Assembly: GCF_036785885.1 (NCBI RefSeq)
Contig: NC_092312.1
Coordinates: forward strand, 22,214,001-22,278,000
DNA: 64,000 nt
From: Coffea arabica
Lineage: Eukaryota > Streptophyta > Magnoliopsida > Gentianales > Rubiaceae
Reading direction: 5' to 3'
Numbering within the stretch: position 1 is the first letter of the stretch; every line of letters starts with the position of its first letter. Positions 1 to 54,070 of the stretch are shown here, piece by piece. Below the pieces are notes generated by a model that was not told where the DNA came from, did not search any database, and saw only the letters and a list, made by a program, of their open reading frames with translations. A program made the translations under genes and the position numbers.

Positions 1-1451
1 AAAGATATATATATATATATGTTGAAAACAAGAAAAAGAAAGGGGAGAAAAAAAAAAGAGATGAAATTGTTTGTATTCATTATTTACAATGAGCTCATTT
101 GCTAAAGTGGGTAGTTCATTGGGTTTTCTCACATTCAAAAGAAATAAATCAGCCCACATGATTTGGGCTCTTATGTTCAAATTCTAGCGAGGACAGACAA
201 AGGCCTGAGCGGTCCAACCCAAAAAACCTGTCGTCCTTGTCTCTTATCCTCGTCACTCGCCTCCTCTGACTTCCCCGACATCGCCTCTGTTTTACCCATC
301 ACCGGCGCAAAATAAAAGGCCAAAAAAAAAAAAAAAAGGAAAGAGGAGACGTAGGGAGGAAACTTCACCGACTCCGTCGACGATTTCTGCTCCCCACAAG
401 CGTAATCACGTCTGAAGATTTTCATATAGAACTGTAATATCCTTCTTCATAGCTCTCTAATTTTTGTTTATTTTATCTGAAATATATGAGTATTTAGAAT
501 TTTTGTGGTGCTCACTAACTAGGATCTCTTGGGAAACTATTCTGTCCGTTTCTTATATGTATGTTTAACGTTGTGTACATGAGATGAAAATAGCTGGATT
601 TGTCGTTGTTTTTGGAGAATTTTTTCGGTTCTTCTCTGTTCAATTTCAATTTCAACTTCGTATGGAGGTTGCGACTGGGAGGTTTGCTTACTAACTGTTC
701 GAGTCAAAGCCGGGAAAGGAAAAAGAAACGCCGACTGTTATGCATGCTCAAAAGTGTTATATTTTCCTTTTGTCAATCTGACGCCGGTTACTCGTTTGTT
801 TGTCCTGAGCAAATTCATTTTTGCTTAATGTTGTAAGAATGCAAACTGAGCGCGTAGCTGGTTTTACATGGGGTATGGAGGTGATCATGTCAGCTAACGC
901 CTTGACCTTCTTTCCTCACGACTAAGCTCCCGGATTCATTTCTTTTGGTTTGGAAAGACATGTATCGGTTGGTGTTCCTTTTATTTTGGGGGGGTGGGGA
1001 AGGAGATCACAATGTGGATGGCTGAGACAGCTTTGTAAAGCATGACCTGTTGAGACCTATAAGCATGATTACATTTGAGGCGATTGAGATGAAATTGTTT
1101 TTAAGATTAAGTAAAAATAATTCTTTGTTTCATGAATAATTTTTATTCGGCTTGTTGGGACAAGAAACAAGAATGGAAATTTACAAAGATAAGAGTGGAA
1201 ATTTGTAAGTGAAAGCAGGTAAAGCGGACACAGACAAAGACACTTAAAACTGCTATTCATTTCAGTTTCCTGGTTGACAAAGAGTATTAACACTGTTAAG
1301 TACTAGTTTTCATGTCAAAAAATGTCAACCAAATCCTAGAACCCATTCTCGTATTTGCGAAGAGTTTGACTCTGACAGTTGTTTCTGTGACAGCTAATTG
1401 CCCAGGATTGTGAGATGGTTTTTCTTGATTTGTCAGATTTTGTTTACAGAA
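1..1451 (+). promoter_or_regulatory. 5' flank and probable 5' UTR of the PDRG1-like gene
   Basis: No coding exon is recognisable here. A short AT dinucleotide run opens the window (about 5-20). A CpG- and pyrimidine-richer stretch at about 180-420 stands out from its AT-rich surroundings and is the likeliest promoter and transcription-start area. The first coding ATG lies only 2 nt after an acceptor-like TTTGTTTACAG at 1440-1449, so an untranslated first exon joined by a 5' UTR intron is likely. Its donor cannot be fixed from sequence alone. Open frames on either strand in this stretch have no recognisable protein features. Confidence 0.35.
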
Positions 1452-2942
1452 ATGGGTGAATCCATGAAGCAATTTCAGGATGGTCTGATTGAGGTTGAGA
1501 TTGAAGCTGAAAATTTTTTGTTAGCCCGACACCAAGTAAGTGAGAACTATCTAAGCCTTGAGAAGAATGGATAATTTCCTATTTTCAACCGTCTCTGGTT
1601 TGTAAAAATGTAATTGCAGTTAGTTGAAAACGATAGATTGAGGAATGGCAACAGGGAAGCATTGACAGCACTAAGGAAAAGGGCTAGGACAACCAAAACA
1701 AGTATCCCTTCTCCTTTTGAGTCAATAATGAGGGAGATTGAATCAAGGCCATTGGTGAAAGAAATTTGTGGAACATGTGGTAACCATGATGGCAAAGAGA
1801 ATACATGGTTGATGTTTCCAGGAACTGACGTTTTTGCTGGTATACCATTTCATGCTGCTCATGCCATTTTGGATAAAGGTGTGTTACTTTTTCATTTTGT
1901 TTAGTGTCTTCATAAAATTGCACTCTGTTTATTTTATTAGAATTCAGATATTCTGTCTGCTCACATAAATTTTGTGCACGTGATGTCCTTATATCAGCAA
2001 AACAGAATGTCAATCATTTGATTTCTCGTGAGAATATTTCTTAGTTTATTGCACCATTAAGAATAATTTACTGTAAAGTGAAAGGGTAAGCTACTGCCAT
2101 CTCTTTGTTTAATTTGTAATAATATATCCGAGGCTATGTGAATATAAAGGTGGGATCCGCTTGCATGTGTTTATTGCTTCAGGTACGTAATAAAGCAATA
2201 GCATATTTGCATGTTTATGTTTATTTTTATTTTTTTTAACAAAAAGGTATTTGCATGGTTTTTTGTGTCATAAGATTTCCGGGTGAATCTTTTTTAGATG
2301 CTGAACAATATTGCAGTGGAGTTATTCTTGCATAAGCTAAGGGCAAAACATAATCATAAACTGCTTAATATGGTCATATCACGTGTAATTATCATGTGCT
2401 TGAAATGGGATTTTTGAAAAGTGGGAACTTGCTATAAGTTTGTTATACTCTATTGACTAGATACTTTGTCTTTTTGCTTGAAGCTGTAGAAAAACAAGGC
2501 TTCCACATTAATGTTGCTTTTTATTACAACCATCCTTCATATGCCTTAAATTTCTCCCAGATTTTGTGATTACTGGTATCCCCAGGAAGAAAAGAGAAAT
2601 GGAAATTTCATGTGGAATGCTGATATCTTGTATTAATGAAATGTAGATCAAGCTGGGTTAGATTTTGAAGCTAAAAAACTTCAAAGTTACATCAAGGAGA
2701 AGTCCTTCTGGATTTCTGAAAAAGGAGTTCTTGCTGACAAGATCAGTCCGGGTGTTCTTAGGTCTCTTGTTACTCTAACAGATCAGACAAAGTAAGTTTT
2801 GCATGGTTAGACGTTCGGTACTTTTTTTCCTTGTATATCTAGGTGAGACACCTGGTTGACATTTCCTCTGTAGTATTCTTCTTTCTCTATCCTATGCATT
2901 AACGGGCAAATTATCCCATCCAGGGATCAGGAAAAGGAGTAA
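1452..2942 (+). CDS. PDRG1: PDRG1-like prefoldin-family protein (4 coding exons, 168 aa)
   Basis: Exons are 1452-1535, 1620-1878, 2647-2791 and 2924-2942; introns of 84, 768 and 132 bp all have GT-AG ends, and the phases (0, 1, 2) join into one 507-nt frame ending in TAA. The protein begins MGESMKQFQDGL. An N-terminal helix (about 8-50) contains LVENDRLRNGNREALTALRK, which resembles the animal PDRG1 segment with the R-N-x-N-R-E-x-L-x-A-L pattern. A middle part (about 75-115) has an unusual CGTCGNHDGKENTW stretch and FPGTDVFAGIPF. A second helix (about 115-140, DQAGLDFEAKKLQSYIKEK) is followed by a conserved-looking tail. Two helices around a short beta region are typical of beta-class prefoldins. 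From family knowledge, PDRG1 belongs to the R2TP/prefoldin-like co-chaperone complex that helps HSP90 assemble RNA polymerases and PIKK kinases. Function in this plant is inferred. The last exon adds only six residues (frame-completing Lys-Asp-Gln-Glu-Lys-Glu) and is the least certain part. Confidence 0.8.
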
Positions 2943-3005
2943 ATCATCCAAGTCCTCTTTTGTATTGCAAAAACCAAGTTCGGAGACAGAAAGGTTATTA
3001 GTGAA

Positions 3006-3063
3006 ATCTCTCTCTCTCTCTCTCTCTCCCCCCCCACACACACACACACACTCACTCACTCAC
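3006..3063. repeat. Compound CT / C / CA / CTCA microsatellite
   Basis: A run of CT dinucleotides passes into a C tract, then CA dinucleotides, then CTCA units. It lies just 3' of the PDRG1-like stop codon, so it could be transcribed in the 3' UTR. Such tracts change length by replication slippage. Confidence 0.9.
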
Positions 3064-4424
3064 TTATTGCCTTTTCTGTGTATCCACTCTTTTGATATCT
3101 GTATATCTCTGCTGGGAAATCCACATGCATTATCCCTCAAATCTAGCTGTTGAAAGCCATGAGAAAGCTGGGAAGAGCCTTTTCTTTAAGAAAATTGTCC
3201 ACTGTGCATGTTCTATTTTTTTGGTGAAATTCCATTTTTGGCATTGTGACTTATGACTCAGCAAGAAACTGTATGCTTCCATGGATGTATATTTCTGTAT
3301 TCATTCATGTTGGATAATGTGTAATCAAGCACCACATCATACAGGTTTTGTGAACTTGGAAATCATGGTTAGTCTGTTCACAACTTGTGAACTTGTATCT
3401 TTCGCATTCGTTTTTCTTATTGTGTATATAATACCTGGCTTCATGAGCATATAGCAGTTACTCCCAAGGTTGGTCTCCTCTTCTCATCATTCAAGTATAC
3501 TTATTAGATTATTTGTCTGTGTTCTTGTACTTTTCATGGGACTAATTTGTGCTTTTGAGAAGTGAAGGTTCTTTGTACCTTGTTTCTATGAGCTACCAAG
3601 CTTTTTCATTATTGGTCGAGATGACTGTTTTGAGGATCTTGTAGAATTATGCCCAATTGCAAAGTTAAATTGTGTCAATGGATATATACTATACATGATT
3701 GTTGGCATACTAATTGAATAGGTTGCTGTCAGTGGGGTTTTCATTTTGTTTCACCGAGGGCCAATGCCAACCCCAAACTTATTTAGCTGGGAGTTGGATT
3801 TCATAGTATTTGTCATGCCATTGACTTTGCTCCTCTGAGTTCATCTTGTGAGGAAAATAAAATGTTCTGTGTAGTTAGTTCCTATAGTCTGGGCATTTGG
3901 ATTTGTTATTACATGTTCTACAGCTTAATGCAGAAATGTGGTGGTTCTTTTCTGAGTGTTATTTACTGGAAAAATGTGCTTGCTGTTCTGCTAATTGTAT
4001 GCATGTAGTGCTAGTAGCTTAACAAAATTGGATCTTGTTGTCAAAGTTTTATTTCTTTCTGGTTGGTGCTCAAGTGTTACGAAGGTAAGTATGGATTGAT
4101 ACTCTCCGTAAATTTTAATAGGTCCAGGAATATTGGATTACATAAGCCTGGTAAGAATTCTTGGTTTTTCTGTACAATAGACGTAGTATATGTTAATGTG
4201 GTAGTTATGTGGTGGCTGTGGGGCCAAATGGAACTTTTATAACTGAAGAAGATGATTAGTGATTTTTCTTCTCTTTGTCCTGGGGAGTTTTCTTTTTCAC
4301 ACCAACTTCAGAGATTGAATTTGGTATGAAGACATACAAGCAATGCCGTTAATTCTGCTTGATGTCTTCTCTAACCTCCTCCTTTTTCCCCATCTTTTTT
4401 CTCTCCCTCCATTTTGGTCTTGAT

Positions 4425-4571
4425 TCACTGGGAAGAGGTAAAGACTGAATGGCTAATTCGTTAGAAAATTTTTTCAGTGTACGTTCATTTGAATTGGTTC
4501 CTGGGAAGAGGTAAACATTGAATGGCCAATTCATTGGAAACCTTTTGGTGTACATTCATTTGAATTGGTTG
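4425..4571. repeat. Tandem duplication of about 73 bp
   Basis: Two adjacent copies (about 4425-4497 and 4498-4571) share CTGGGAAGAGGTAAA, GAATGGC, and CATTTGAATTGGTT in the same order with scattered substitutions. The divergence suggests an old local duplication. No coding role is visible. Confidence 0.7.
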
Positions 4572-5969
4572 CTGGATACTGAAATAATCTAGTTGGCCGG
4601 GAAAGCATCCTGCTGCGAGAAAGTAGACAATCATTTGCTTAATGACGCTATGAACATAGATATGTGCTGTGGAACGGAGATGTCATCTGCAATTGCCTTT
4701 AGATGCAAATCGAACTCATGGAATAATAGTTGCTTAAAGTGCCGGAAGGAGATGCTAAACGTACTAAAACTTAGGCAGGGTGGATTGGTTGGCAAAATAA
4801 CTGAGCGATACAATATAGTTGACTGTAATGAATTTGTTATTTAGATGTTCATGGAATAGTTTCTCTAGAAGCTCTCGCCGGTGTAAATATGCATTTTGTG
4901 TGGCACAAAAGGCCTGTATTACATTAGCATATACATATTAGGGTTGATCCCACTGCCTCGTTAAAAGGCTAGAACCCTTGACATGTCAAAGGAGCAATGG
5001 CAATTTGAAAGAAAAATTGATGGCCAGTTCAGGCTAACCTAATTTGGCCCATATATATATATATTCTTGTGGCTTTGGACGCTGCATTTGCCTGAATTGT
5101 AGAAGCCTTTGATGTGACAGATCACGAATTATCCCAGGTTAATGGATTATGCGTATTTGCAAAGTTTTTCTTGAAGGTTTTAACTCGCTACTGTTACGTG
5201 AGATCCGTTTAGCCTATTTCAAAATGGTCTTGCAGTAAGTTTGCATGTCAATGGTATCTTCCACCTTCAGCGAAGTTCGTTTTGTTTACTTGTAAAGATC
5301 TTGAAAGAAAAACCAGTGTTAATTGTTCACTGCTGCTTATTCTTGCTAGTGTGTTCGACCACATTAGGCAAAATTTGTCTGTGCAACTTGAAGTATCTAG
5401 CTACTTTCGACCCTCCACCTGTTCTTGGTCCTTAATTGCCTGTCTGCTGAATTGTTATGCAGAATTTGCGTGGAGCAAAGTGACGGAGAGGCCCCTTTAA
5501 ATGTCAGAAAAAGGGGATTGGAGTTTATGCTAACAAGATTAGTTCCAGGGTGTTCTCCAATCTCTCGTCAACATTCAACAAACATTCCAAATCGGTCTGC
5601 CAACCAGAACAATTATCTCAATGATGTGCACCCGATGCCTTGTAACTTATTCCTTGAAAAACTAAAGATTTTGACATCTAGCCGTCTACTTGCATCATCA
5701 TTTTGCTGAATATATTTACATTAAAGGCACAATCAGTTCTTCCGCCGATACCTGGAGATTGGTGGGCACTTTTCAGAATTTTTTTTTTTTTTTTTGTGCT
5801 GCAACACTAAAGAAAAACATTTAAGCACACTCTTGCATGTGCGTGTGCCCGTACGCGCGCCATTTAACTCAATTAATCAGAGGATCAACATATGGTTCCA
5901 TTTCAAATGAACGTTACAAACAACGAGTTACAAAGAGAGAAAATTAAGAAAATTGTCAAGTGGAAAAAT

Positions 5970-6158
5970 AACAATAATTGTGCCACCAAGACATCTTTTT
6001 AAGTCTTGGTGGAGGTGGGAGGTCAAGGGTTTGATCCTTGTCACCCACCAATCACTATTTGTGGCTTCTCCCTCTTCTTTTTCGTAGATTAGAATAGAAT
6101 AGATTATACGAACTGTTATCGTTGCAGATTAAAAAAAAAAAAAGAACAATAATTGTGC
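5970..6158 (+). mobile_element. SINE with 14-bp target-site duplication
   Basis: AACAATAATTGTGC is repeated exactly at 5970-5983 and 6145-6158. The 161-bp body between them ends in a 13-A tail (6131-6143) just before the second copy. The body has tRNA-like internal promoter elements: a box-A-like AGTCTTGGTGG and a box-B-like GGGTTTGATCC. A 10-bp hairpin (CCACCAAGAC / GTCTTGGTGG) spans the 5' TSD junction. The exact TSD, A-tail and Pol III boxes together make a tRNA-derived SINE the best reading; its named family is unknown. Confidence 0.8.
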
Positions 6159-7895
6159 ATCTAAAAATTCTAAATTTGGGCACCGTACCCTTTTCATTGG
6201 TTGAGTATGCGAGATGTTCGCTTGGTTCTCCGGATCTCCTGTTTGAAACTGGTTTCGCCATTCATGATTTTTGGTTCTCTGGTGATGATTCCCATTGCTT
6301 GCATTTGTTCACGTCATAATCCATGGAATGACTAAACATGTTTCCCTTTGGACCACACAAGATACGAGACCATCATAATTCTGTGTCTGATGCTATAATC
6401 ATCCATGCTTTTTCTCATCTCGTGTTATGTGGGTTTCAGACACTTTATTGTTTCTGGCCATTCCTCATCGATCTAAAATTTGAGTAGGTGTTGTTCTAGT
6501 GATCAAGCTGGATTGACGTTGTCATGTTGGTGTAACACAATAAATTAGAATCTTAAAAAGTGGACCAATGCCTAAAAGTTTTTTTGTCAGTGCGGCGAAC
6601 ATCATTTTGACTTGATATTTTTTTTCGGGAGTCACGGAATGAGCCAAAGAGGGACCTGCACATGATTTATAATCTAAATCGCTGTGTTGGGAATGTATTA
6701 TCACTATCATTTTCTGCATCATTAGACTTGAGATGTTGACAAGCCACAGAAAATAGTTTTGGCGCAGCAGAACTACTCTTGCCCTTGCCCTTGCCTATTA
6801 TGTAAGTATTCAACATCAAGTATTCAATGATGATAATGCTGCCTGACCTGCATGCATTGCGAATATTATGTTGTTTCCTACAATTTTATTTTCTGTCTGG
6901 CGAAACGGGGGTAGCCACGGTTACCACCTCCAATTTGACTTGTATGTTCTTGCACGATCTTCTTACCATTGTTGTCATTTAAGGTGACAAGACCTGTGGA
7001 GCCAGGATCCCTTCAAGAGATGGAGGCAGTAATACTACTGTTAGGTTAATCATCATGCATGTTCCATTATAGTTGCATGAAATCTTAAAGTGCTATTTAT
7101 AAACTCTAAGACGAAGATAACGAAGGTAAAACCATCACAAAAATTAATCCCTTAAAAAAGTTACTGGACAGTTTTTTTTTTTTTTTTTTGTTTAGTTTAA
7201 GCATGTCGCAACTTCTTTTTATCAATAAAAGGAGTTGTTAATCATTTAGATGCGTGACAGACTACGTACAATTTTACCTTCACTATATGCAAGTTAGGTG
7301 TCTTTCACATGGACTTCCTTTCGTTTGCCTAATGACATGTTGATGCTGTGGGGCTTAAATACATAAGTCAAAGTAAACGTGACTCTAGTAATAGTGTGAA
7401 GGGGGGGGGGGGTTGCAAAATATGAGTTGTTAACCCTTCATCAATAGTGTGATTGAATGCACGTAGCTGTAACTAACGTAACACTCAGCTCAATCAACTA
7501 TGTTTTGATATGGGCTAACTTTTGGGGGCTTGACTCTGTCAATTAGAATAGATGTTGTTCAAGAATATAGCTAACTAGGCAGGTGGGATAATATCATGTC
7601 CAAACTGTTGAAGATAAAACGTCTGTGAAAAGAGGCAGAGGAAGGTTGCTTTCAAACAGCGAAGGTTAAAACTCTTTTGAGGTTCGGTTGAGTCTTTTGT
7701 TGGCACCAGCGACTGTTTCGTAGTCGCTTTCAACCAAACAGATGGATGACTTTGAGAAAATGCACCATCTTTTAATCTTAGAAATGGTTTCCCTTATCAC
7801 AACTTTCCTTTGCTTTCCCGTACATTCCTTGCTCTAAAAGATAGGAACGATGGTTTACACTGAATTGTTCCCTTTACGCATGACAGAATTCAAAG
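6159..7895. other. Intergenic, no gene or clear element
   Basis: AT-rich spacer with homopolymer runs (T tract near 7171-7189, G tract near 7402-7413). I see no supported gene, RNA or bounded transposon here. Confidence 0.4.
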
Positions 7896-16229: not shown

Positions 16230-18594
16230 TGTGACAACCCCACCTCACTATAGTTCTCAAATAAATTACAATGTAAATATCAAATATTACATCAAATACT
16301 CCATGAATTTACATACCACAAGTGAATCGAAATTCAAAATATACATGAGATATTCCATCCAGTCACACTAATAAGTTAATACAAGTGTTTCCTCTGCCTC
16401 GAACCCTATGGAGAGGAAATAAATATTTGGGGTGAGTTAGAAACTCAGCGAGTGTCCAGTAAAAATCAATAATCAAATAAGTTTTCACAATAGTGCATTT
16501 AGATGATGTCATGAGTCAATGATCAAATGTAAGTTTATTGCTCTTGTGAGCCAGTGAAATCATTGTACTTAAACATCCAACGCTCAAATAGATCAAGTAA
16601 CAGTCACGTAATACAAGGGAGACATCGGTGTTCCAACATTCAAGGCAAGTCAAATGTCATTAAGGTGGAAACGTTGGTGTTAAACACAAGACTTCCAAGC
16701 ACTCATTTGAGCCAAATCATTGCATAGCACACACGCAAGCACACATGATATGCAATCGAGAGTAATCAGTGTAAGAAATAGTTTCAAATGTAACTTTTGA
16801 AACAGTTTTGAAATTACTCACCAACTACAGTTCATGATCTTCATCTATCATAGATAGTTTCTTTGCTCAAGTCCAAGCCCTAGATCACAAATATCATGTC
16901 AAGTAAAGGAAATTCTAAAATCATCAAGTTCCTCTCACCTTTTGGCATTTTAATCACAACTGAAGCTACACTTATCAAATTGCGATGAATCTTATGGCAT
17001 TTCGAAACTAAGATATAGGTCTATATTTTCTATGAAAACATCGACACCCAATTCTCACATTTTCAGGGTAAAAAATGGACGGTCAGAAGCACATGCAAAA
17101 CAAGTTAGGAAAGTTCGAGTTTTGTGCAGTCAGGAGTGCTCTAACCAAATAATAAGCTAAAATGATCCAATTGATCTGAAATTTTGCAGGTAGAAAGTAA
17201 CTCAAATCCCTATAAGTTTCATGTGTTTGTCCAAAAGTTGATTCGGTCCATAAGTCAGTCAAATTCGAGTCTCAAGTTGCTACTTCATCCAGTAAAAGAC
17301 AGAACAGGTATGCAATTTCAGTCAATTTTGAAAAATCACACATATTCATGAAAATTGAGAAAAAGGCTGAACTTTTTATGGTTGATAGTATTCTGACTTT
17401 AGTTTCAAATGCAACAAACGAAACTAAATTCTGAATTTTCTACAACAAGATATAGCAGATTTTCTAAGACTGCCCAAAGGTTCCTGCAGACAAATTTTCA
17501 CCAACACCTCCTCTTAATTTCTTTACTTTTTCATCATATAATCAACACCAAAGTTCACTCAAAACAACCTCAATTGCACATACAAATCATAAACTATTAA
17601 ACACACTTAATCAAGGTCACAACACCCTTTAATTTTAGCCAATTAATGACTCTAAAACCAACCACAATCAAGTCCAAATTGGAAACCCTAAACTGAAATT
17701 TATGCACATAAGTTGGAAATTTCTTTAGATAAGTTAAACTAGCCTATAAAACCTCAATATTTCACATAGCAAAGCTATCAAACCATGACCAACACTTAAG
17801 CATCATATGTGGGCAGAAATTTACCAATAAAAACTGAAAATTTCCATAACACCACTTCAACTCATGAAATTTCCCATAAAACTACCACTTTAGCAACCTT
17901 AAACCACTGGTATGGTAGTATTAGAAACAAAGAGGGATTTCTTGGCAAACTTATCTTGTAACCTCAAGAAAGATGGCAACTTAATGCTTTTTCCTCCAAA
18001 ATTACTCTACCAACACCTTAAAATCTACCTTAGTTAGCATTTTTATAGAGTAGTTTGCACAAACTATGGTTGGAGCTCAAGATTCAAGTAAGAAAATTGG
18101 GATTGAAGATGAAGTTTCTCTCCCTTGTTTTTCCTCTCAAGAATTTCGGCCAAGACTAAGAAAAATGGGAAGAAATGAGGAAATTTTGGTCAATGTTTGG
18201 TTTTAGTAAGATTAAGAAAGATTTAGTCAAAATCCAACTTCTAACGGTTTCGCGACACTTGGGTCTTTAGGATTTTGTTCTCATCTTCTTGTCTTCCAAA
18301 GCTAATTTATTTAGTTAACCTCTGATTATCCCCTAGCACCTTATAAAATAATATCCCTTTATGCAAAACTTCATCGAGTAGTCAAAATTTTACCGCACTT
18401 ACCGCACTAGCGGGTCCCACGTCTATAATACACTTCAAACTTACCATGTACTAACTTATACCAAGAAAATGATTTAAAAACTTGACTTACTTATAAAAAT
18501 ATCTAGGAAATTAAGGTAATAAAGTAATATAAAGAAATGCATGAAAAGAAATAGAATAGATATAAAATAAGAATTTTTTTTTTGGGACATCACA
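16230..18594. mobile_element. Solo LTR, about 2.37 kb
   Basis: It begins TGTGACAACCCCACC and ends GGGACATCACA, so it has TG...CA termini. Flanks TGTAT (16225-16229) and TGTAC (18595-18599) agree at 4 of 5 positions and are likely a decayed 5-bp TSD. The first about 400 bp match the arms of the LTR palindrome at 18921-23658, for example GGGGTGAG..AACTCAG and GTGAGCCAGTGAAATCAT. There is no internal coding region, primer site or second LTR, so it is best read as a solo LTR left by unequal recombination. Its length suggests Ty3-type elements, but the lineage is inferred. Confidence 0.65.
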
Positions 18595-19862
18595 TGTACA
18601 TATGCATACACACATATATGCATGTTTGTGGCATACTTAAAAAAATTTCTTTAAATTTCTATTTTTCAAATCTTGCTATTATCTTCTCTGATTTATTTTC
18701 TCCTAAAAAAAGGAAAATGTTGCAAATGTGCCAATTCTAGAAAAGATTTTTTAATTGATTTTAGAACTCATATATATTTCTCATGTTTTATTTGAATAGG
18801 GCTGCAAACAAATCAAGTCATTTGCGAGTCAATTCGGTTAAAGTTTGACTCAAGTTTGGTAAATATTGAGTTCGAATGATACTCGAATCAACCAAATTAA
18901 GCTATCGAACTTGAGTCGAGTGTGACGGCTCCACCTCACCCTAAGGCGAACCAGAGGGTTCGGCGGACCGCCTACCTAACTCTCGCCGGGACTCAGTCGT
19001 TCACTACAATTCTCAAATAGATTACAATATAAATCTCAAATATACATCAAATTCTCCAATAATTACATGCCATAAGCGAAGCATCCACGCTTAGAATTAG
19101 TTTCCGCTTCGTACATCCATGCGATCCTTAATACCAACTATTATACAGGAGTAAGTTCAAAATTCAAAGTACACAAACATCCACTTCAATTCCAAATCTA
19201 AACTGTACAAGATATAAGCCATCCAACCACGTGAATAAGTACTACAAGCCTTCCTTCGCCACGAGCCCTGTGGAGGGGAATAAAATATTTTTGGGGTGAG
19301 CTAAAAACTCAGTGAGTAACCAGCAAAATCAGTACTCAAATATATTTCAAAATAAAGCACTTCAATGAGTTCATGACATTATCTGGAGCACCAACATTGC
19401 TCCCTCTTACTGTTAAACGTTAAAGGATTTATTTGAGCATTGGGTGTTTAAGTGCCATGATTTCACTGGCTCACGAGAGTAATAAACGTACATTTGATCT
19501 CTGAATCATGACATCATTGAAATGCTTTATTTTGAAATATATTTGAGTATTGATTTTGCTGGTTACTCACTGAACTTTTAGCTCACCCCAAAAATATTTT
19601 ATTCCCCTCCACAGGGCTCGTGGCGAAGGAAGGCTTGTAGTACTTATTCACGTGGCTGAATGGCTTATATCTTGTACAGTTTAGATTTGGAATTGAAGTG
19701 GATGTTTGTGTACTTTGAATTTTGAACTTTCTCTTGTATAATAGTTGGTATTAAGGATCGCATGGATGTATGAAGCGGAAACTAATTCTAAGCGTGGATG
19801 CTTCACTTATGGCATGTAATTATTGGAGAATTTGATGTATATTTGAGATTTATATTTTAATT

Positions 19863-20780
19863 TGTAAGTGCCCGGTGCAACCCAATGAGTACAAACAATT
19901 TCACAATGATGCACTAGGATATATCAAATTTAAGCACAATAAAGAAAACTTAATTAAAGAGAAAAGATAAGAAATGCAAACCAAATATCAATCCAATAGC
20001 CTCTTCAATTGATGGCGATGCTAACCAAGATGTACAAGTGAAGGCTCACTCCTTCCTCACCCCAAACACACTTTGGTTGAGCCAAGGAGTTTTACAACAA
20101 TTCTAGTTAACCCTCAACAACCTACACTTGAAAGATCACTCACCCAATTAAGAACTATTTTATACAAATGAGGCAACCTTCACCAAGGTTTTACCACTTC
20201 AAGTGAATAACTTTCACTTGAGCAACCTCACAACCCAACTTTCCCAACCCCTTATACAACCAACAAAGAATCTTTCTACTCAAAAATCTCACTTGTAAGC
20301 TTGTATTTTGTGTTGGCAAAAGTCTCTTGTCTTCTTGTGCTTTGGGGTGTTTATAGAAGGTGAGAAATGGCTTCAAAAGATTCTCCAACGGTCAAATATT
20401 AAATGCTGTCAAAACTAGCCGTTGGCCTGTCGGACGTCCGAACCACCTGTCGATCGTCCGAACCCTGCGTCCAAACCACCTGTCGGACGTCCGAACCCTG
20501 CGTCCGACCGTCGTCAGAGAGTCATCAAATCTTTGCGAAATTTCTCGGACGTCCGATGCGATCGATGTGCGTCCGACAGAGTTTCCTTCTTGATGTTCTT
20601 CATCCTTTCGGACGTCCGATAGCTTCCTTTCGGACGTCCCACATGAGTGCCCTGTTTTTGCTTCTTCTTTTATGCCACAAGAATCTGTTCTAACAAATTA
20701 CTCACATAAAAACATTAGCTCAAATCTACATTTTGGTTTGTTAATCATCAAAACCAAGGATTGATCGACCAAGGTCAACA
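19863..20780 (-). repeat. 3' LTR of the TR-GAG element
   Basis: On the minus strand it runs TGTTGACC...CACTTACA. A TATAAACA box lies at about 20349-20356 on the minus strand, roughly 425 bp from the LTR start. Upstream of it, within U3, are several copies of the 12-bp palindrome TCGGACGTCCGA or close variants (about 20438-20640). Confidence 0.88.
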
Positions 20781-20945
20781 ATCTCCCCCTTTTTGATGAT
20801 GACAAACAAAATGAAGATTTCTTTTATCAAATAAATTCAAATAAAGCTCCCCCTTAGAAAGTGCCAACATACAAAGAAATTTCAATAAATCCTACTCCCC
20901 CTTTTGGCATCAATCAAAAAAAAAAAACAAACTCCCCCTTTATTT
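20781..20945 (-). promoter_or_regulatory. Polypurine tract and repeated purine tracts
   Basis: Directly next to the 3' LTR the minus strand reads AAAAAGGGGGAGAT (20781-20794), the expected plus-strand primer. Three further GGGGGAG tracts follow within 165 bp: near 20849-20857 (AAGGGGGAG), 20896-20905 (AAAAGGGGGA) and 20931-20941. Repeated polypurine tracts near the 3' LTR are known in some Copia (SIRE-type) elements. Confidence 0.75.
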
Positions 20946-21032
20946 TTCAGATCAAGACCATATTGAATATCAAAATTTTCAAATGTACTTACAACCATAT
21001 AGCACTACTTGGATCAAATCTTCATGATGTAC

Positions 21033-22580
21033 CTAAATATGAGAAATTTCATTTGGTACCCTATCTTTATAGGGTCCTTGGGAGTTAATACGACATGATC
21101 TAGCAATCCACATGAATTTCATGCCTTTTCTCATATTTTTCTTTACATAGCAATCATTTTGCATATGTCCAAATTTGCAACAAAAGTTACACATGATAGA
21201 AGTATTTTGCACATATGTGGATTTAATGCAACTAATTTTCTTATTTCTTATCATAGCAAACTTATTTGTGCCTTGAAAAGATTTGCTTTCTTTTATTTGA
21301 GAAAACTTTTGTTTCTCATTTTGGAGAAACTCGTTCAAGTCATTAATTCTTTTCTTTAACACATTTTGTTCCTCCAACATTTTTTCATAAAACTTTGTTT
21401 TCTCTTCTAACTTCCTTTTCAAATTATTTTTGCAATCAAAAACACTTTTTTGATTTTTTAAATCATCATTTTCCATTCTCAAACATTTGTTTTCTTGAAA
21501 CAGTTTGGAGTTTTCTTCCAACAAATCATTTATTTTTGTTTTCAAATCTTTATTTTTAGCATAAGATTTTCTCAAACTTTTATGCATTTTAATCATAAGA
21601 ATTTTCACATCATCATCTTCATTATCTTCATCACAAGAAGAGTGATAAGAACTTACCTCATCTTCTCCAACGGCCATTAGTGCCATTTGGGCCAACTCTT
21701 CTTTTTCTCTTTTTGAATTGCATTCATCCCATGTAATTTTGCAATCTCCTCTTGAGCATCTCTTGTTGAAGGTCTTCTTGGAACTTTTGATGTGAGGAGT
21801 TGTATCATTGTCCACTTCCATGATTTCATTACCCATGAAGGATGGGTTATCCCCCACTTGAGATGCTTTAAAAGCTATGCCTCTCTTATACATTCTTGCA
21901 TTTTCTTCCTCTTGCACTTTGAATTTCAGCTTTAATTCATAAAAGGTTAGGGTATCCACAAGAGATTCAATGGACATAGAATTTAAATCATTTGCCTCTT
22001 CTATAGCATTTATTTTGTTTTCCCATTCTTTTGGTAAGGCATTCAAAATCTTTCTATTTTTCTCACCCAAAGAATATTCTTTTCCAAACAATTTAAAATC
22101 TTCAATAATGTCACAAAATCTACTACACATCTTATCAACATTTTCAAGAGGATGCATTTTGAAAAATTCATATTGAGAAACAAGCAAAGATTTCTTTTGT
22201 TCTTTAATATCTTGGTTACCTTCATGAAATACACACAATTTATCCCAAATATCTTTAGTTGATTTACAACCTTTAATCCTACTAGATTCATTTACATCTA
22301 ATGCATTGTACAATATACACATGGCCTTGGCATTCAAAGAAAGGTATCTCTTGTTTTTTTCATTCAATTCTTGTCTAGTCTTTAATCTACTCAAATTGGT
22401 GGTAGAGTCAACTATTCTAGCTTCATAAGGACCATCTTCTACCACATACCATAATTCAATATAAACGGATTGTAAGAAAATCATCATTCTTTGTTTCCAC
22501 ATGCTAAAATGAGAACCATTAAACATAGGTGGTCTATCAATAGATTGCCCTTCTAAAAAAGAAACTTTTATGGTTGCCAT
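21033..22580 (-). CDS. gag: Copia-type Gag polyprotein (515 aa), intact
   Basis: The frame runs uninterrupted from an ATG at 22580 to a stop at 21033. Residues 1-60 contain PPMFNGSHFSMWKQRM and the following E-LW-VVEDG, the classic start of plant Copia Gag (DUF4219/UBN2 region, about 15-225). Residues about 110-190 hold IWDKLCVFHEG and the RILNALPKEW stretch, also Gag signatures. A long Lys/Glu/Asn-rich coiled coil spans about 325-435. A zinc knuckle CNFCCKFGHMQNDC (CX2CX4HX4C) lies at 464-477. Downstream, NSQGPYKDRVPN resembles the end of SIRE-type Gag. An upstream acidic segment (CDEDNEDDD) follows a region where a first zinc knuckle is often found; here only CSRGDC remains, so that knuckle seems lost. 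Gag forms the particle that packages element RNA. No protease or pol sequence follows. Confidence 0.9.
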   Translation of the reverse strand: MATIKVSFLEGQSIDRPPMFNGSHFSMWKQRMMIFLQSVYIELWYVVEDGPYEARIVDSTTNLSRLKTRQELNEKNKRYLSLNAKAMCILYNALDVNESSRIKGCKSTKDIWDKLCVFHEGNQDIKEQKKSLLVSQYEFFKMHPLENVDKMCSRFCDIIEDFKLFGKEYSLGEKNRKILNALPKEWENKINAIEEANDLNSMSIESLVDTLTFYELKLKFKVQEEENARMYKRGIAFKASQVGDNPSFMGNEIMEVDNDTTPHIKSSKKTFNKRCSRGDCKITWDECNSKREKEELAQMALMAVGEDEVSSYHSSCDEDNEDDDVKILMIKMHKSLRKSYAKNKDLKTKINDLLEENSKLFQENKCLRMENDDLKNQKSVFDCKNNLKRKLEEKTKFYEKMLEEQNVLKKRINDLNEFLQNEKQKFSQIKESKSFQGTNKFAMIRNKKISCIKSTYVQNTSIMCNFCCKFGHMQNDCYVKKNMRKGMKFMWIARSCRINSQGPYKDRVPNEISHI

Positions 22581-22622
22581 GATCTTTACTCTAAGCGGTT
22601 AAGCTTGATCAAAAGAGACCAA

Positions 22623-22634
22623 GCTCTGATACCA
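22623..22634 (-). promoter_or_regulatory. Primer-binding site, initiator tRNA-Met
   Basis: On the minus strand TGGTATCAGAGC lies 2 nt from the end of the 5' LTR. This is the usual plant Copia primer site, complementary to the 3' end of initiator tRNA-Met. It fixes the element's orientation and its 5' LTR. Confidence 0.92.
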
Positions 22635-22636
22635 AT

Positions 22637-23554
22637 TGTAAGTGCCCGGTGCAACCCAATGAGTACAAACAATTTCACAATGATGCACTAGGATATATCA
22701 AATTTAAGCACAATAAAGAAAACTTAATTAAAGAAAAAAGATAAGAAATGCAAACCAAATATCAATCCAATAGCCTCTTCAATTGATGGCGATGCTAACC
22801 AAGATGTACAAGTGAAGGCTCACTCCTTCCTCACCCCAAACACACTTTGGTTGAGCCAAGGAGTTTTACAACAATTCTAGTTAACCCTCAACAACCTACA
22901 CTTGAAAGATCACTCACCCAATTAAGAACTATTTTATACAAATGAAACAACCTTCACCAAGGTTTTACCACTTCAAGTGAATAACTTTCACTTGAGCAAC
23001 CTCACAACCCAACTTTCCCAACCCCTTATACAACCAACAAAGAATCTTTCTACTCAAAAATCTCACTTGTAAGCTTGTATTTTGTGTTGGCAAAAGTCTC
23101 TTGTCTTCTTGTGCTTTGGGGTGTTTATAGAAGGTGAGAAATGGTTTCAAAAGACTTTCCAACGGTCAAATATTAAATGCTGTCAAAACTAGCCGTTGGC
23201 CTGTCGGACGTCCGAACCACCTGTCGATCGTCCGAACCCTGCGTCCAAACCACCTGTCGGACGTCCGAACCCTGCATTCGACCGTCGTCAGAGGGTCATC
23301 AAATCTTTGCGAAATTTCTCGGACGTCCGATGCGATCGATGTGCGTCCGACAGAGTTTTCTTCTTGATGTTCTTCATCCTTTCGGACGTCCGATAGCTTC
23401 CTTTCGGACGTCCCACATGAGTGCCCTGTTTTTGCTTCTTCTTTTATGCCACAAGAATCTGTTCTAACAAATTACTCACATAAAAACATTAGCTCAAATC
23501 TAAATTTTGGTTTGTTAATCATCAAAACCAAGGATTGATCGACCAAGGTCAACA
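22637..23554 (-). repeat. 5' LTR of the TR-GAG element
   Basis: It has the same length (918 bp) and termini as the 3' LTR. The differences between the copies, such as GCGTCCG versus GCATTCG at about 23274-23280, are mostly C/T or G/A changes. It carries the element promoter: the TATAAACA box on the minus strand at about 23123-23130. Confidence 0.88.
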
Positions 23555-24076
23555 TAATTTATTTGAGAATTGTAGTGAACGACTGAGTCCCGGCGAGAGT
23601 TGGGCAGGCGATCCGCCGAACTCTCTGACTCGCCTTAGGGTGAGGTGGGGCCGTCACATCGAGCATAGAGAAACTTGACTCGTTAGCTCATGAGTCTATT
23701 CAAATACACACACACACACATACACACATGTATATATACATATACATATATACATATATGTGTGTGTATTATTTTAATAGTAAAATTACATAAATTTTCT
23801 CAATATTTTTATTATTATTAAGAAAAATGACTATTTTATTCATTTTTTAAAAAAATAAAATAAATATTTTTTTTTTTACTTTTTAAAGTTTGAGTAGACT
23901 CGAATTGAGTTCGACTAGACTCGAATTTGAAGTCGGGTCGATTTCGAATTTTACATTCAAAGTTCATCGAATTCAACCTCCATTTCAAACTTGGTAAAAT
24001 TGAATCCAATTTGATTCGATTAAACCAATTCTCGATTTCAATTCGACTCAACTCATTTGTAACTTTGTATTCTGAA

Positions 24077-48980: not shown

Positions 48981-48989
48981 ATAAAACTG

Positions 48990-50062
48990 GGTTGCGTCTA
49001 CGGTGTAAAGTTCACCTTTCTGCCCATAGTAGGCAGAACCAATGCAAGGAGGCCAGCTGTGCTATGTGGGACGCACAAAGAAGGACATCCGAGCACCACT
49101 GGAGAAAGCCGGTTTGGCTTGGATGAAAAACGTTATATATTTTAAAATTACAATAAAAGTCCTCTTAAAAATTTGTTCATCATCTAATGCCCAATACTTA
49201 TATTTGATAAATTAAAATAGTTAATTAAATATTCTATTATAATATAAACAACTATATGTCATTGAGTTGATTGAATGATATTTTTTTTTTGTATTTCAAT
49301 TAGTTGTCAATTAAGTTTCAATTGAAATAAATATTTTATAATTATTTAAATTATCAATTTAAGATGAGCATAAATATAAATACATTAAATTGTATTATTG
49401 AAATATTTGATTTAATATAAAAGAAAGACAAGAAATTTTTTAAAAATTTATGTGAGTCCTTTATATTAGTAATCACATTTACTTGTTATTATAATTACAA
49501 TGCCTAACCATAACCAATTGAAACTCATATACACAAGTCATACAACAATTTGCGTTATAATGTTTACAATTAAAGTTACTATACACTCAAATTAAAATTC
49601 TCTTTTTTCCACTAAAATTTCTTTTATATTAAATCAAATATTTCAATAATACAATTTAATGTATTTATATTTATGCTCATCTTAAATTGATAATTTAAAT
49701 AATTATAAAATATTTATTTCAATTGAAACTTAATTGACAACTAATTGAAATACAAAAAAAAAAAAGAAAATATCATTCAATCAACTCAATGACATATAGT
49801 TGTTTATATTATAATAGAATATTTAATTAACTATTTTAATTTATCAAATATAAGTATTGGGCATTAGATGATGAATAAATTTTTAAGAGGACTTTTATTG
49901 TAATTTTAAAATATATAACGTTTTTCATCCAAGCCAAACCGGCTTTCTCCAGTGGTGCTCGGATGTCCTTCTTTGTGCGTCCCCACATAGCACAGCTGGC
50001 CTCCTTGCATTGGTTCTGCCTACTATGGGCAGAAAGGTGAACTTTCCACCGTAGACGTAACC
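48990..50062. mobile_element. Mutator-like foldback element, 1,073 bp, 9-bp TSD
   Basis: ATAAAACTG is repeated exactly at 48981-48989 and 50063-50071; a 9-bp TSD marks Mutator-like elements. The two arms (48990-49426 and 49618-50062) are inverted copies of about 440 bp with only a few substitutions and small indels seen by eye, separated by a 191-bp loop. Termini are GGTTGCGTCTACGG and GGTTACGTCTACGG. The outer 150 bp of each arm is GC-richer than the inner part. No transposase is encoded. A transcript across it would fold into a long hairpin. Confidence 0.9.
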
Positions 50063-50071
50063 ATAAAACTG

Positions 50072-52686: not shown

Positions 52687-53226
52687 GGTATTCTTGTGAT
52701 AAGCAAAACTTTTGGACCAAGGCTTTGGAGCTTGGACCTCTCGTTTCTTATTTGGATGACCTCTGCAGCCCCATGGATAGGGAGTCCAGGCATCAGCAAG
52801 AAAGCATGCTTTGTCTTTAACTTCCCAATTCTACTTTACGCAGGCAATTTTGTCCCCTAATCTTCAATTATAGAATGCACCAACTTATGCATTCAAATCT
52901 TAAAACATCAAGACGGCTTCAATATACATTTAAAAAAAAAAAAATCTTTTTTGGGAGTTGCTTTTCGACCATATGTCTTCTATTACGAATTATGATCAAG
53001 CAATATTTCCTGACAATTATTGACCAATGCTAGGATTCCATTTCTGGTGCATAGATTTTTTTTTTTTCCAATTCCTTTTTTTTTGATAAGCGAGAGATCT
53101 TAAATCCAAGATTGTCTATTTACTATTTTTCCCATTTTACGACCCAACATAATTCTCTTTCCTTTTTGGTACATAGCTTTTTTATTTTTTGGAGCTTAGC
53201 TATTTGTTAGAAACTTCTTACATATA
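52687..53226. other. Intergenic, no gene recognised
   Basis: Spacer with A and T homopolymers; nothing else supported. Confidence 0.35.
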
Positions 53227-53556
53227 GGGTTAAAAACAAAAAATTTTCTATGGTATGTCTAATACACAGAAAAGTCTTCCGTGGTTTCAAAACATATAAA
53301 ACGACACCTCATGTTTTAAACTAAATTGTAAACTAACAGAATTCGTCAAACTTAACAGAATCCAGTAAATTTAACGAAAAATTTAATGAAATCAGGTAAA
53401 TTTAACGGCTGAGACCATCATTTTCGTTAAGTTTAACGAATTCTGTTAGTTTATAATTTAGTTCAAAACATAATGTGTCGTTTTGCATGTTTTGAAATCA
53501 CATAGACCTTTTCTGTGTATTAGGTATACCACAGGAAACTTTTTTACTTTTATCCC
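53227..53556. mobile_element. Foldback MITE, 330 bp
   Basis: The left end GGGTTAAAAACAAAAAATTT and inverted right end GGGATAAAAGTAAAAAAGTTT pair. The arms continue to near the centre through CTAATACACAGAAAAG and CTTAACAGAAT-type blocks, so nearly the whole element is a hairpin of about 160-bp arms. TSD is uncertain (TA). Confidence 0.65.
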
Positions 53557-54070
53557 TTACATTTATTGATCATACTTTATTTCACCATTTTTTGCTCATG
53601 TTTAGCTTAAATTGGCTGCAAAATAACTCTACCACGGAGTTTATGCAAGCATTTTTTTTTCCACTACTTGGCCTATTTCGTGTATTTCTTTGCCACAATG
53701 CATAGCCCGCCACCAGGTACCTGCACGCACAACGTGAGCCCAAAAACCTAGTCTGAGTCTGATGATGTGATACACTAACGCCACTCAATTCTTTTTACAC
53801 TTTGGTAATAAATTGGAGATGTGATATGGTAAGATATTTTTGTAGCGAAAGAGTAGGAAGACAATTTTATTGCAAATAGTTGATAATGCAGAAGGTCAAC
53901 TTCGTTGATCATTGTCGTATGGCTTGGGCTGATACAACTTTCGCACCTTTCGATTTAAACCATGTTGTACATTGCGGTTAGGGTTTGTCAGAAGAAGCCC
54001 TTTATTATTTTGGCTCTGTTTCTAATTCAATTTTGTTACTAGTTTCCCAACAAAAGCCTGCAATTTTTTA
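53557..54070. other. Intergenic, no gene recognised
   Basis: Short spacer between two TIR elements; nothing supported. Confidence 0.35.

What the first reader, a model, noticed from the sequence alone, without database searches (positions are those of the whole stretch)
18921..23658. Palindromic LTR insertion whose two outer ends are the same LTR terminus, with a 5-bp TSD
Both outer ends read TGTGACGGC inward, and both arms match the start of the solo LTR at 16230. A normal LTR has different ends (U3 start and U5 end). Here two inverted LTR starts appear to have been integrated as one unit, since TCGAG flanks both sides exactly. This suggests integrase joined two U3 ends of an aberrant palindromic cDNA, or that a foldback derivative of an LTR can move. 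I know of no common element with this form.
Basis: partly seen in the sequence, partly recalled or inferred. Interest (0 to 1): 0.75.

Follow-up and report, generated by a model that had tools for sequence, protein, structure and literature searches.

The report
Fold-back retrotransposon DNA, inserted whole
A plant retrotransposon's half-made DNA copy seems to have folded back on itself, copied itself into a palindrome and then been pasted into a chromosome by the normal insertion enzyme, leaving a fossil of a copying mistake that is described for retroviruses.

Summary
Window 18921-23658 is a 1,041-bp palindrome of one LTR's terminal part, split by a younger gag-only copia insertion, with an exact 5-bp duplication (TCGAG). 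One correction: in relatives a tRNA primer-binding site abuts this LTR end, so it is the U5 end, where first-strand cDNA starts, not the U3 start. The element is U5-U5. The turn-around is an imperfect 19-nt inverted repeat with a 129-nt loop; in normal copy L047 it is the best of 1,730,730 19-mer pairs. The arms share a few private variants. Best reading: nascent minus-strand cDNA snapped back, primed itself, copied back to its own 5' (U5) end, and integrase inserted the product. The junction pattern occurs once in the 1.2-Gb genome: a one-off, not a mobile fold-back family. Two other loci have U5-U5 ends with perfect, different duplications: a 1,220-bp unit with unlike arms, and a full element whose 5' LTR is a 3.4-kb palindrome. 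A census by symmetric target sites found no pair among 112 U5 ends, so frequency is open. Precedents: a maize inverted TRIM with target duplication; HIV strong-stop self-priming.

The parts
18916..18920 (.). left target-site duplication TCGAG
18921..19357 (-). left arm: LTR terminal 437 bp, U5 end outward
   Evidence: orientation from PBS-adjacent relatives
19358..19376 (.). distal copy of the 19-nt inverted repeat CACTTCAATGAGTTCATGA, inferred 3'-terminal primer of the fold-back; junction at 19357/19358
19377..19505 (+). 129-nt loop, LTR sequence continuing the right arm
19506..19524 (.). proximal copy of the inverted repeat (16 of 19 complementary)
   Evidence: row L029, which is the window
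19525..19862 (+). right arm, inner part (rc of LTR 437 down to 100)
19863..23554 (-). nested younger non-autonomous copia-type element: 918-bp LTRs at 19863-20780 and 22637-23554, gag ORF 21033-22580, duplication TAATT at 19858-19862 and 23555-23559
23560..23658 (+). right arm, outer part ending in the second U5 end
23659..23663 (.). right target-site duplication TCGAG
16230..18594 (-). diverged related solo LTR (U5 end at left; flanks TGTAT/TGTAC, 4 of 5); context only

Best explanation
A reverse-transcription by-product was integrated. First-strand (minus) cDNA of a large-LTR, minimal-internal-region retrotransposon starts at its tRNA primer, so its 5' end is the U5 end of the LTR. When synthesis had reached about 604 nt, its 3' end folded back, paired through a 19-nt inverted repeat about 148 nt upstream, and primed synthesis on the same strand back to its own 5' end. 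After copying of the hairpin, this gave a linear duplex with a U5 end at each terminus. Integrase, which normally takes one U5 and one U3 end, inserted it with a normal 5-bp duplication. Shown: U5-U5 ends, duplication, junction at a strong inverted repeat of the LTR subfamily, 129-nt loop kept, arms closer to each other than to 26 other copies, single copy. Inferred: that the strand was minus-strand cDNA, self-priming, completion to a duplex, and integrase action.
For: (1) Relatives place PBS TGGTATCAGAGC directly after this end (8 of 9 U5|PBS rows are of this type) and a polypurine tract before the other end (3 rows), so this end is the 5' end of minus-strand cDNA. (2) The inverted repeat with a 129-nt loop is present in normal copies: 18 of the 19 loci L030-L048 and, with 135 nt, the units of L017 (13-16 of 19 complementary). 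In normal copy L047 it is the only pair with 16 of 19 among 1,730,730 19-mer pairs. Folded as DNA, the L047 strand ending there has its 3'-terminal base paired with position 363, the start of the proximal repeat, 17 pairs within the repeat. (3) The element keeps the distal repeat's own variants at the junction, as a retained primer would. (4) Arms 95.4% identical, above 26 other copies (best 94.5% to the left arm, 92.7% to the right), with 2 shared variants absent and 2 rare in those copies. (5) TSD 5/5 against 0 of 396 control comparisons. (6) Locus L012 has a 3,435-bp U5 palindrome with a 23-nt loop, halves 95.6% alike against 88.1-90.1% to two relatives, 55 jointly derived against 23 and 23 private sites.
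Against: L030-L048 were fetched by a junction query that selects for the distal repeat, and L047 is among the best-paired of them; the pair was not found by the same scan in the other 19 of 20 ten-kb loci, including the copies closest to the arms. It is a subfamily feature. L025, also U5-U5 with TSD, has unlike arms, so simple self-priming does not explain it. The folded strand is no more stable overall than shuffled sequence (z = -0.44). Only 2 shared variants are strictly private, and 26 copies are a small, similarity-chosen part of the family. No cDNA or reads were seen, and the transcription start (end of strong-stop) was not located.
Confidence: 0.7

Rival explanations
1. Two separate cDNAs were integrated by one integrase complex, each by its U5 end, at one target. 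Their free inner ends were then joined by the cell through short inverted homology.
For: Gives U5-U5 ends and a TSD; naturally allows unlike arms as in L025; a junction in homologous sequence fits single-strand annealing.
Against: Arms share variants (2 private, 2 rare), and in L012 55 derived sites, pointing to one template; the turn-around sits at the best inverted repeat found in a normal LTR; L012 is nearly symmetric with a 23-nt loop. Two sister cDNAs of one RNA are not excluded.
Confidence: 0.15
2. It is the solo remnant of an L012-like full element with a palindromic 5' LTR: recombination between the palindrome's inner arm and a 3' LTR removed the internal region.
For: L012 exists with TSD CAAGT on both sides; single LTRs with TSD are frequent in the loci examined.
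Against: Only one L012-type locus seen; in it the 3' LTR belongs to another LTR subfamily. It still needs a fold-back first.
Confidence: 0.08
3. Two independent LTR insertions in opposite orientation plus deletion, with a TSD match by chance.
For: Ends of this type are very common (12,684 + 12,661 at up to 1 mismatch), and TCGAG-like words are common in these flanks.
Against: TSD 5/5 (0 of 396 controls), arms closest to each other, junction at the inverted repeat.
Confidence: 0.04
4. Assembly or sequencing artefact (palindromic chimeric read).
For: Such artefacts exist (recalled).
Against: Arms differ at 18 of 437 sites; one arm carries a nested element with its own duplication; TSD is present.
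Confidence: 0.03

Closest known systems
[quoted passage not shown] 2C legend; sections 8 and 22 and find passages seen, not the whole paper)
   Same: inverted LTR-element unit flanked by one 5-bp TSD (CTTCA); the paper says the Zma-SMART arrays were checked by PCR and sequencing
   Different: described as two inverted TRIMs, and the sections I saw give no mechanism or end identity for it; here only part of one LTR, U5-U5, turned at an inverted repeat
Self-priming of minus-strand strong-stop DNA in HIV-1 (two passages of PMC4668388, one the reference entry of Guo et al. 1997)
   Same: 3' end of first-strand cDNA folds back and primes on itself
   Different: described as aberrant DNA reduced by nucleocapsid protein; here an apparent integrated product in a plant-like genome
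Fold-back / long-TIR DNA transposons (MULE type; recalled)
   Same: palindromic architecture with long inverted repeats
   Different: here a 5-bp TSD, LTR ends and a single copy; the window has a MULE-like case at about 48990-50062 with an 11-bp flanking repeat for contrast
Solo LTR
   Same: TG...CA ends and 5-bp TSD, same LTR family
   Different: a solo LTR has one U3 and one U5 end

Membership tests
LTR-retrotransposon integrase product | short fixed-length TSD (5 bp) | tested here: met
   TCGAG both sides; 0 of 396 control comparisons
LTR-retrotransposon integrase product | TG...CA terminal dinucleotides | tested here: met
   TGTGACGGC...GCCGTCACA
Ordinary LTR or solo LTR | one U3 end and one U5 end | tested here: not met
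   both ends are of the type that is U5 in relatives
Self-primed minus-strand cDNA | turn-around at an inverted repeat, loop retained | tested here: met
Self-primed minus-strand cDNA | ends exactly at the tRNA-primer junction (U5 end) | tested here: met
   in relatives; the window element itself has no PBS
Self-primed minus-strand cDNA | both arms from one template | tested here: inconclusive
   favours it (95.4% to each other, 2 private and 2 rare shared variants) but rests on few sites and 26 copies
Self-primed minus-strand cDNA | made by reverse transcriptase in a particle | not testable with these tools
   needs cDNA assays
Mobile fold-back element | several copies with the same junction and different TSDs | tested here: not met
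   1 match in the whole genome; only the window spans the junction among 40 scored of 829 candidates
TRIM | element under 1,500 bp (criterion in PMC4717578, passage) | tested here: not met
   host family LTRs about 2.1-3.0 kb with an internal region of about 170 bp in L012

The most novel reading that the evidence does not exclude
U5-U5 fold-back cDNA is a recurrent integration substrate in this large-LTR family. A self-primed hairpin that also copied the PBS from the tRNA can stand in for plus-strand strong-stop DNA at the second strand transfer, giving elements such as L012 whose 5' LTR is a palindrome ending in U5.
Probability: 0.3. Interest if true: 0.68.

Novelty: new variant of a known kind. 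Interest (0 to 1): 0.5.

Why it matters
Self-priming of first-strand cDNA is described for HIV-1 as a side reaction that nucleocapsid protein reduces (PMC4668388, passage). A TSD-flanked genomic product would show that it happens in living plants and that a retrotransposon integrase can insert DNA with two U5 ends. It gives a searchable signature (convergent U5 ends with a shared TSD and a turn at an inverted repeat) for measuring this error from genome assemblies. Integrated hairpins are also inverted repeats that could feed small-RNA silencing (inference).

Tried and rejected
Rejected: U3-U3 reading (PBS next to this end in relatives). Rejected: mobile fold-back family. Rejected: 4.7-kb element as one unit (nested copia with its own TSD). 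Tried without yield: the TSD-symmetric census (GTWAC 24 + 26 ends, CAWTG 33 + 29 ends; 0 convergent pairs within 15 kb, read from the full lists). Both ends must match the typed pattern; by eye, of the three known cases only L025 would pass the GTWAC version of the end motif, and L025 and the window the CAWTG version, so the census misses real cases, but it is a negative result. One close convergent pair on C1 among the 100 places listed (7.3 kb apart) had no matching flanks; its right end is followed by a PBS-like sequence. Paper searches, seen as listings, showed the maize case and HIV self-priming but no integrated self-primed LTR palindrome. A search for normal copies of L025's odd arm and the target patterns AAWTT, GAWTC and ATWAT did not complete.

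Full report
Observation. Window 18921-23658 has both outer ends TGTGACGGC reading inward and TCGAG on both sides. Two sets of inverted arms are found. The larger span is produced by a nested element at 19863-23554: two 918-bp LTRs (10 transitions, 1 transversion, K2P 0.012), a gag ORF matching Retrotran_gag_2 (PF14223, E 1.4e-25), minus strand, duplication TAATT. Without it the host unit is 1,041 bp: 437-bp arms, two copies of a 19-nt inverted repeat and a 129-nt loop. Arms differ at 18 of 437 sites (16 transitions; K2P 0.043), so on a common clock the palindrome is older than the nested element.

What the ends are. The window lies in an unnamed, 1.198-Gb, apparently plant genome (131 contigs). 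I fetched 20 loci of 10 kb around arm matches. One search gave 9 rows of an LTR end followed by TGGTATCAGAGC, the primer-binding site for initiator tRNA-Met (tRNA name recalled): L012, L013 (two), L017 (four), L018, L022. Eight have this type of end; the second L013 row is another LTR. In L012 and L015 (three rows) the opposite LTR end is preceded by AAGGAGGGGAGTT, a polypurine tract; a fourth row of that motif, in the window, is unrelated. Normal relatives are LTRs of about 2.1-3.0 kb with different ends and 5-bp TSDs: one search printed 13 such rows over the window and 19 loci (L014 dropped as a repeat of L013); two are the L025 palindrome itself and one (L019 minus 3055) is weak. The internal region in L012 is about 170 bp, and L017 is a tandem array of period 2,580 bp.

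Junction. A scan of held loci found CAYTTC[AG]ATGATGTCATGA-like and TCATGAACTCATTGAAGTG-like repeats in inverted orientation with 129 nt between in 18 of the 19 loci L030-L048, and with 135 nt in the units of L017, 13-16 of 19 complementary. L030-L048 were fetched with the junction query, which selects for the distal repeat; the pair was not found in the other 19 ten-kb loci, so it marks a subfamily. In copy L047, one of the best paired, it is the best of 1,730,730 pairs of 19-mers over 1,900 nt and the only one with 16 of 19. Folded as single-stranded DNA, the strand from the U5 end to the distal repeat has its last base (529) paired with position 363, the first base of the proximal repeat, with 17 pairs in the repeat, although overall stability is not unusual (z -0.44). 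In the element the distal repeat is followed not by its usual neighbour but by the complement of the sequence next to the proximal repeat. Extension of a folded-back 3' end would give exactly this, and the distal repeat keeps its own variants. Such a strand must have its 5' end at U5, as first-strand cDNA does; this step is inference.

Single event. An 81-nt junction query matched in full only at the window among 40 scored of 829 candidates; the others match one side. A pattern spanning the junction with up to 3 mismatches has 1 forward and 0 reverse matches in the whole genome, controls 0. It is not a mobile fold-back family.

One template. Over 456 columns the arms are 95.4% identical; none of 26 other held copies is closer to either arm (best 94.5% to left, 92.7% to right). 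Two shared states are absent from the 26 and two are rare. The 26 copies were gathered by similarity searches and include near-duplicates, so this is support, not proof.

Recurrence. In the window plus 19 loci (49 U5-type ends) there are 12 convergent pairs; three share 5 of 5 flanking bases (window TCGAG, L012 CAAGT, L025 TCTCT), none shares 4, nine share 3 or fewer, and 0 of 396 shifted comparisons match. The window pair was the given finding, so two of the three are new. L025 is 1,220 bp: one arm matches normal LTRs over about 825 nt, the other only over the terminal 73-103 bp, and the boundary between them is not resolved. Self-priming on one strand does not explain it; priming between two different cDNAs could. 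L012 is a full element: TSD, a 3,435-bp palindrome in 5' LTR position directly before the PBS, about 170 bp internal, PPT, a 3' LTR of another subfamily, TSD. Its halves are 95.6% alike against 88.1-90.1% to L010 and L019, with 55 jointly derived and 23/23 private sites, and the loop is 23 nt (read). A hairpin that had also copied the PBS could serve in place of plus-strand strong-stop DNA; this is my inference. Against commonness: symmetric target sites GTWAC and CAWTG gave 50 and 62 U5 ends with no convergent pair within 15 kb, although two of 19 fetched loci would suggest several. The class exists but its frequency is open. U5-type ends number 12,684 + 12,661 at up to one mismatch.

Literature. 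Maize Zma-SMART shows a TSD-flanked pair of inverted TRIMs (PMC4717578, Fig. 2C legend; sections 8 and 22 and find passages seen). HIV-1 strong-stop self-priming and its reduction by nucleocapsid protein is in two passages of PMC4668388. PMC11054761 (passages) describes concerted integration and model reactions using single U3 or U5 ends. Searches showed no integrated self-primed LTR palindrome in their listings; many subscription papers are not held.

Verdict. A real, single-copy U5-U5 palindrome, best read as an integrated fold-back of first-strand cDNA: a new variant of known aberrant reverse-transcription products.

Noticed in passing
window 48989-50063: Second large inverted repeat: about 437-bp arms, 97.5% alike (3 substitutions plus gaps), flanked by CATAAAACTGG on both sides; looks like a long-TIR MULE-type element (flanks read by eye).
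   Followed up: partly
L012 (C1:37668894-37678893) 1102-7499: Full element with a 3,435-bp palindrome as 5' LTR and a 3' LTR of another subfamily, TSD CAAGT.
   Followed up: partly
L025 7781-9000: 1,220-bp U5-U5 element with TSD TCTCT and unlike arms.
   Followed up: partly
L017 (C11:46347259-46357258): Tandem LTR-internal array, period 2,580 bp, units over 99% alike, like tandemly arrayed TRIMs but with large LTRs; C14:25.93-25.98 Mb hits, mostly at 2,346-bp spacing, suggest another array.
   Followed up: no
held loci: The U5-terminal 70-100 bp is shared by LTRs whose remaining sequence differs, suggesting swapping of LTR bodies behind a conserved U5.
   Followed up: no
window 53226-53557: 332-bp palindrome, 78% complementary, with hardly any loop.
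   Followed up: no
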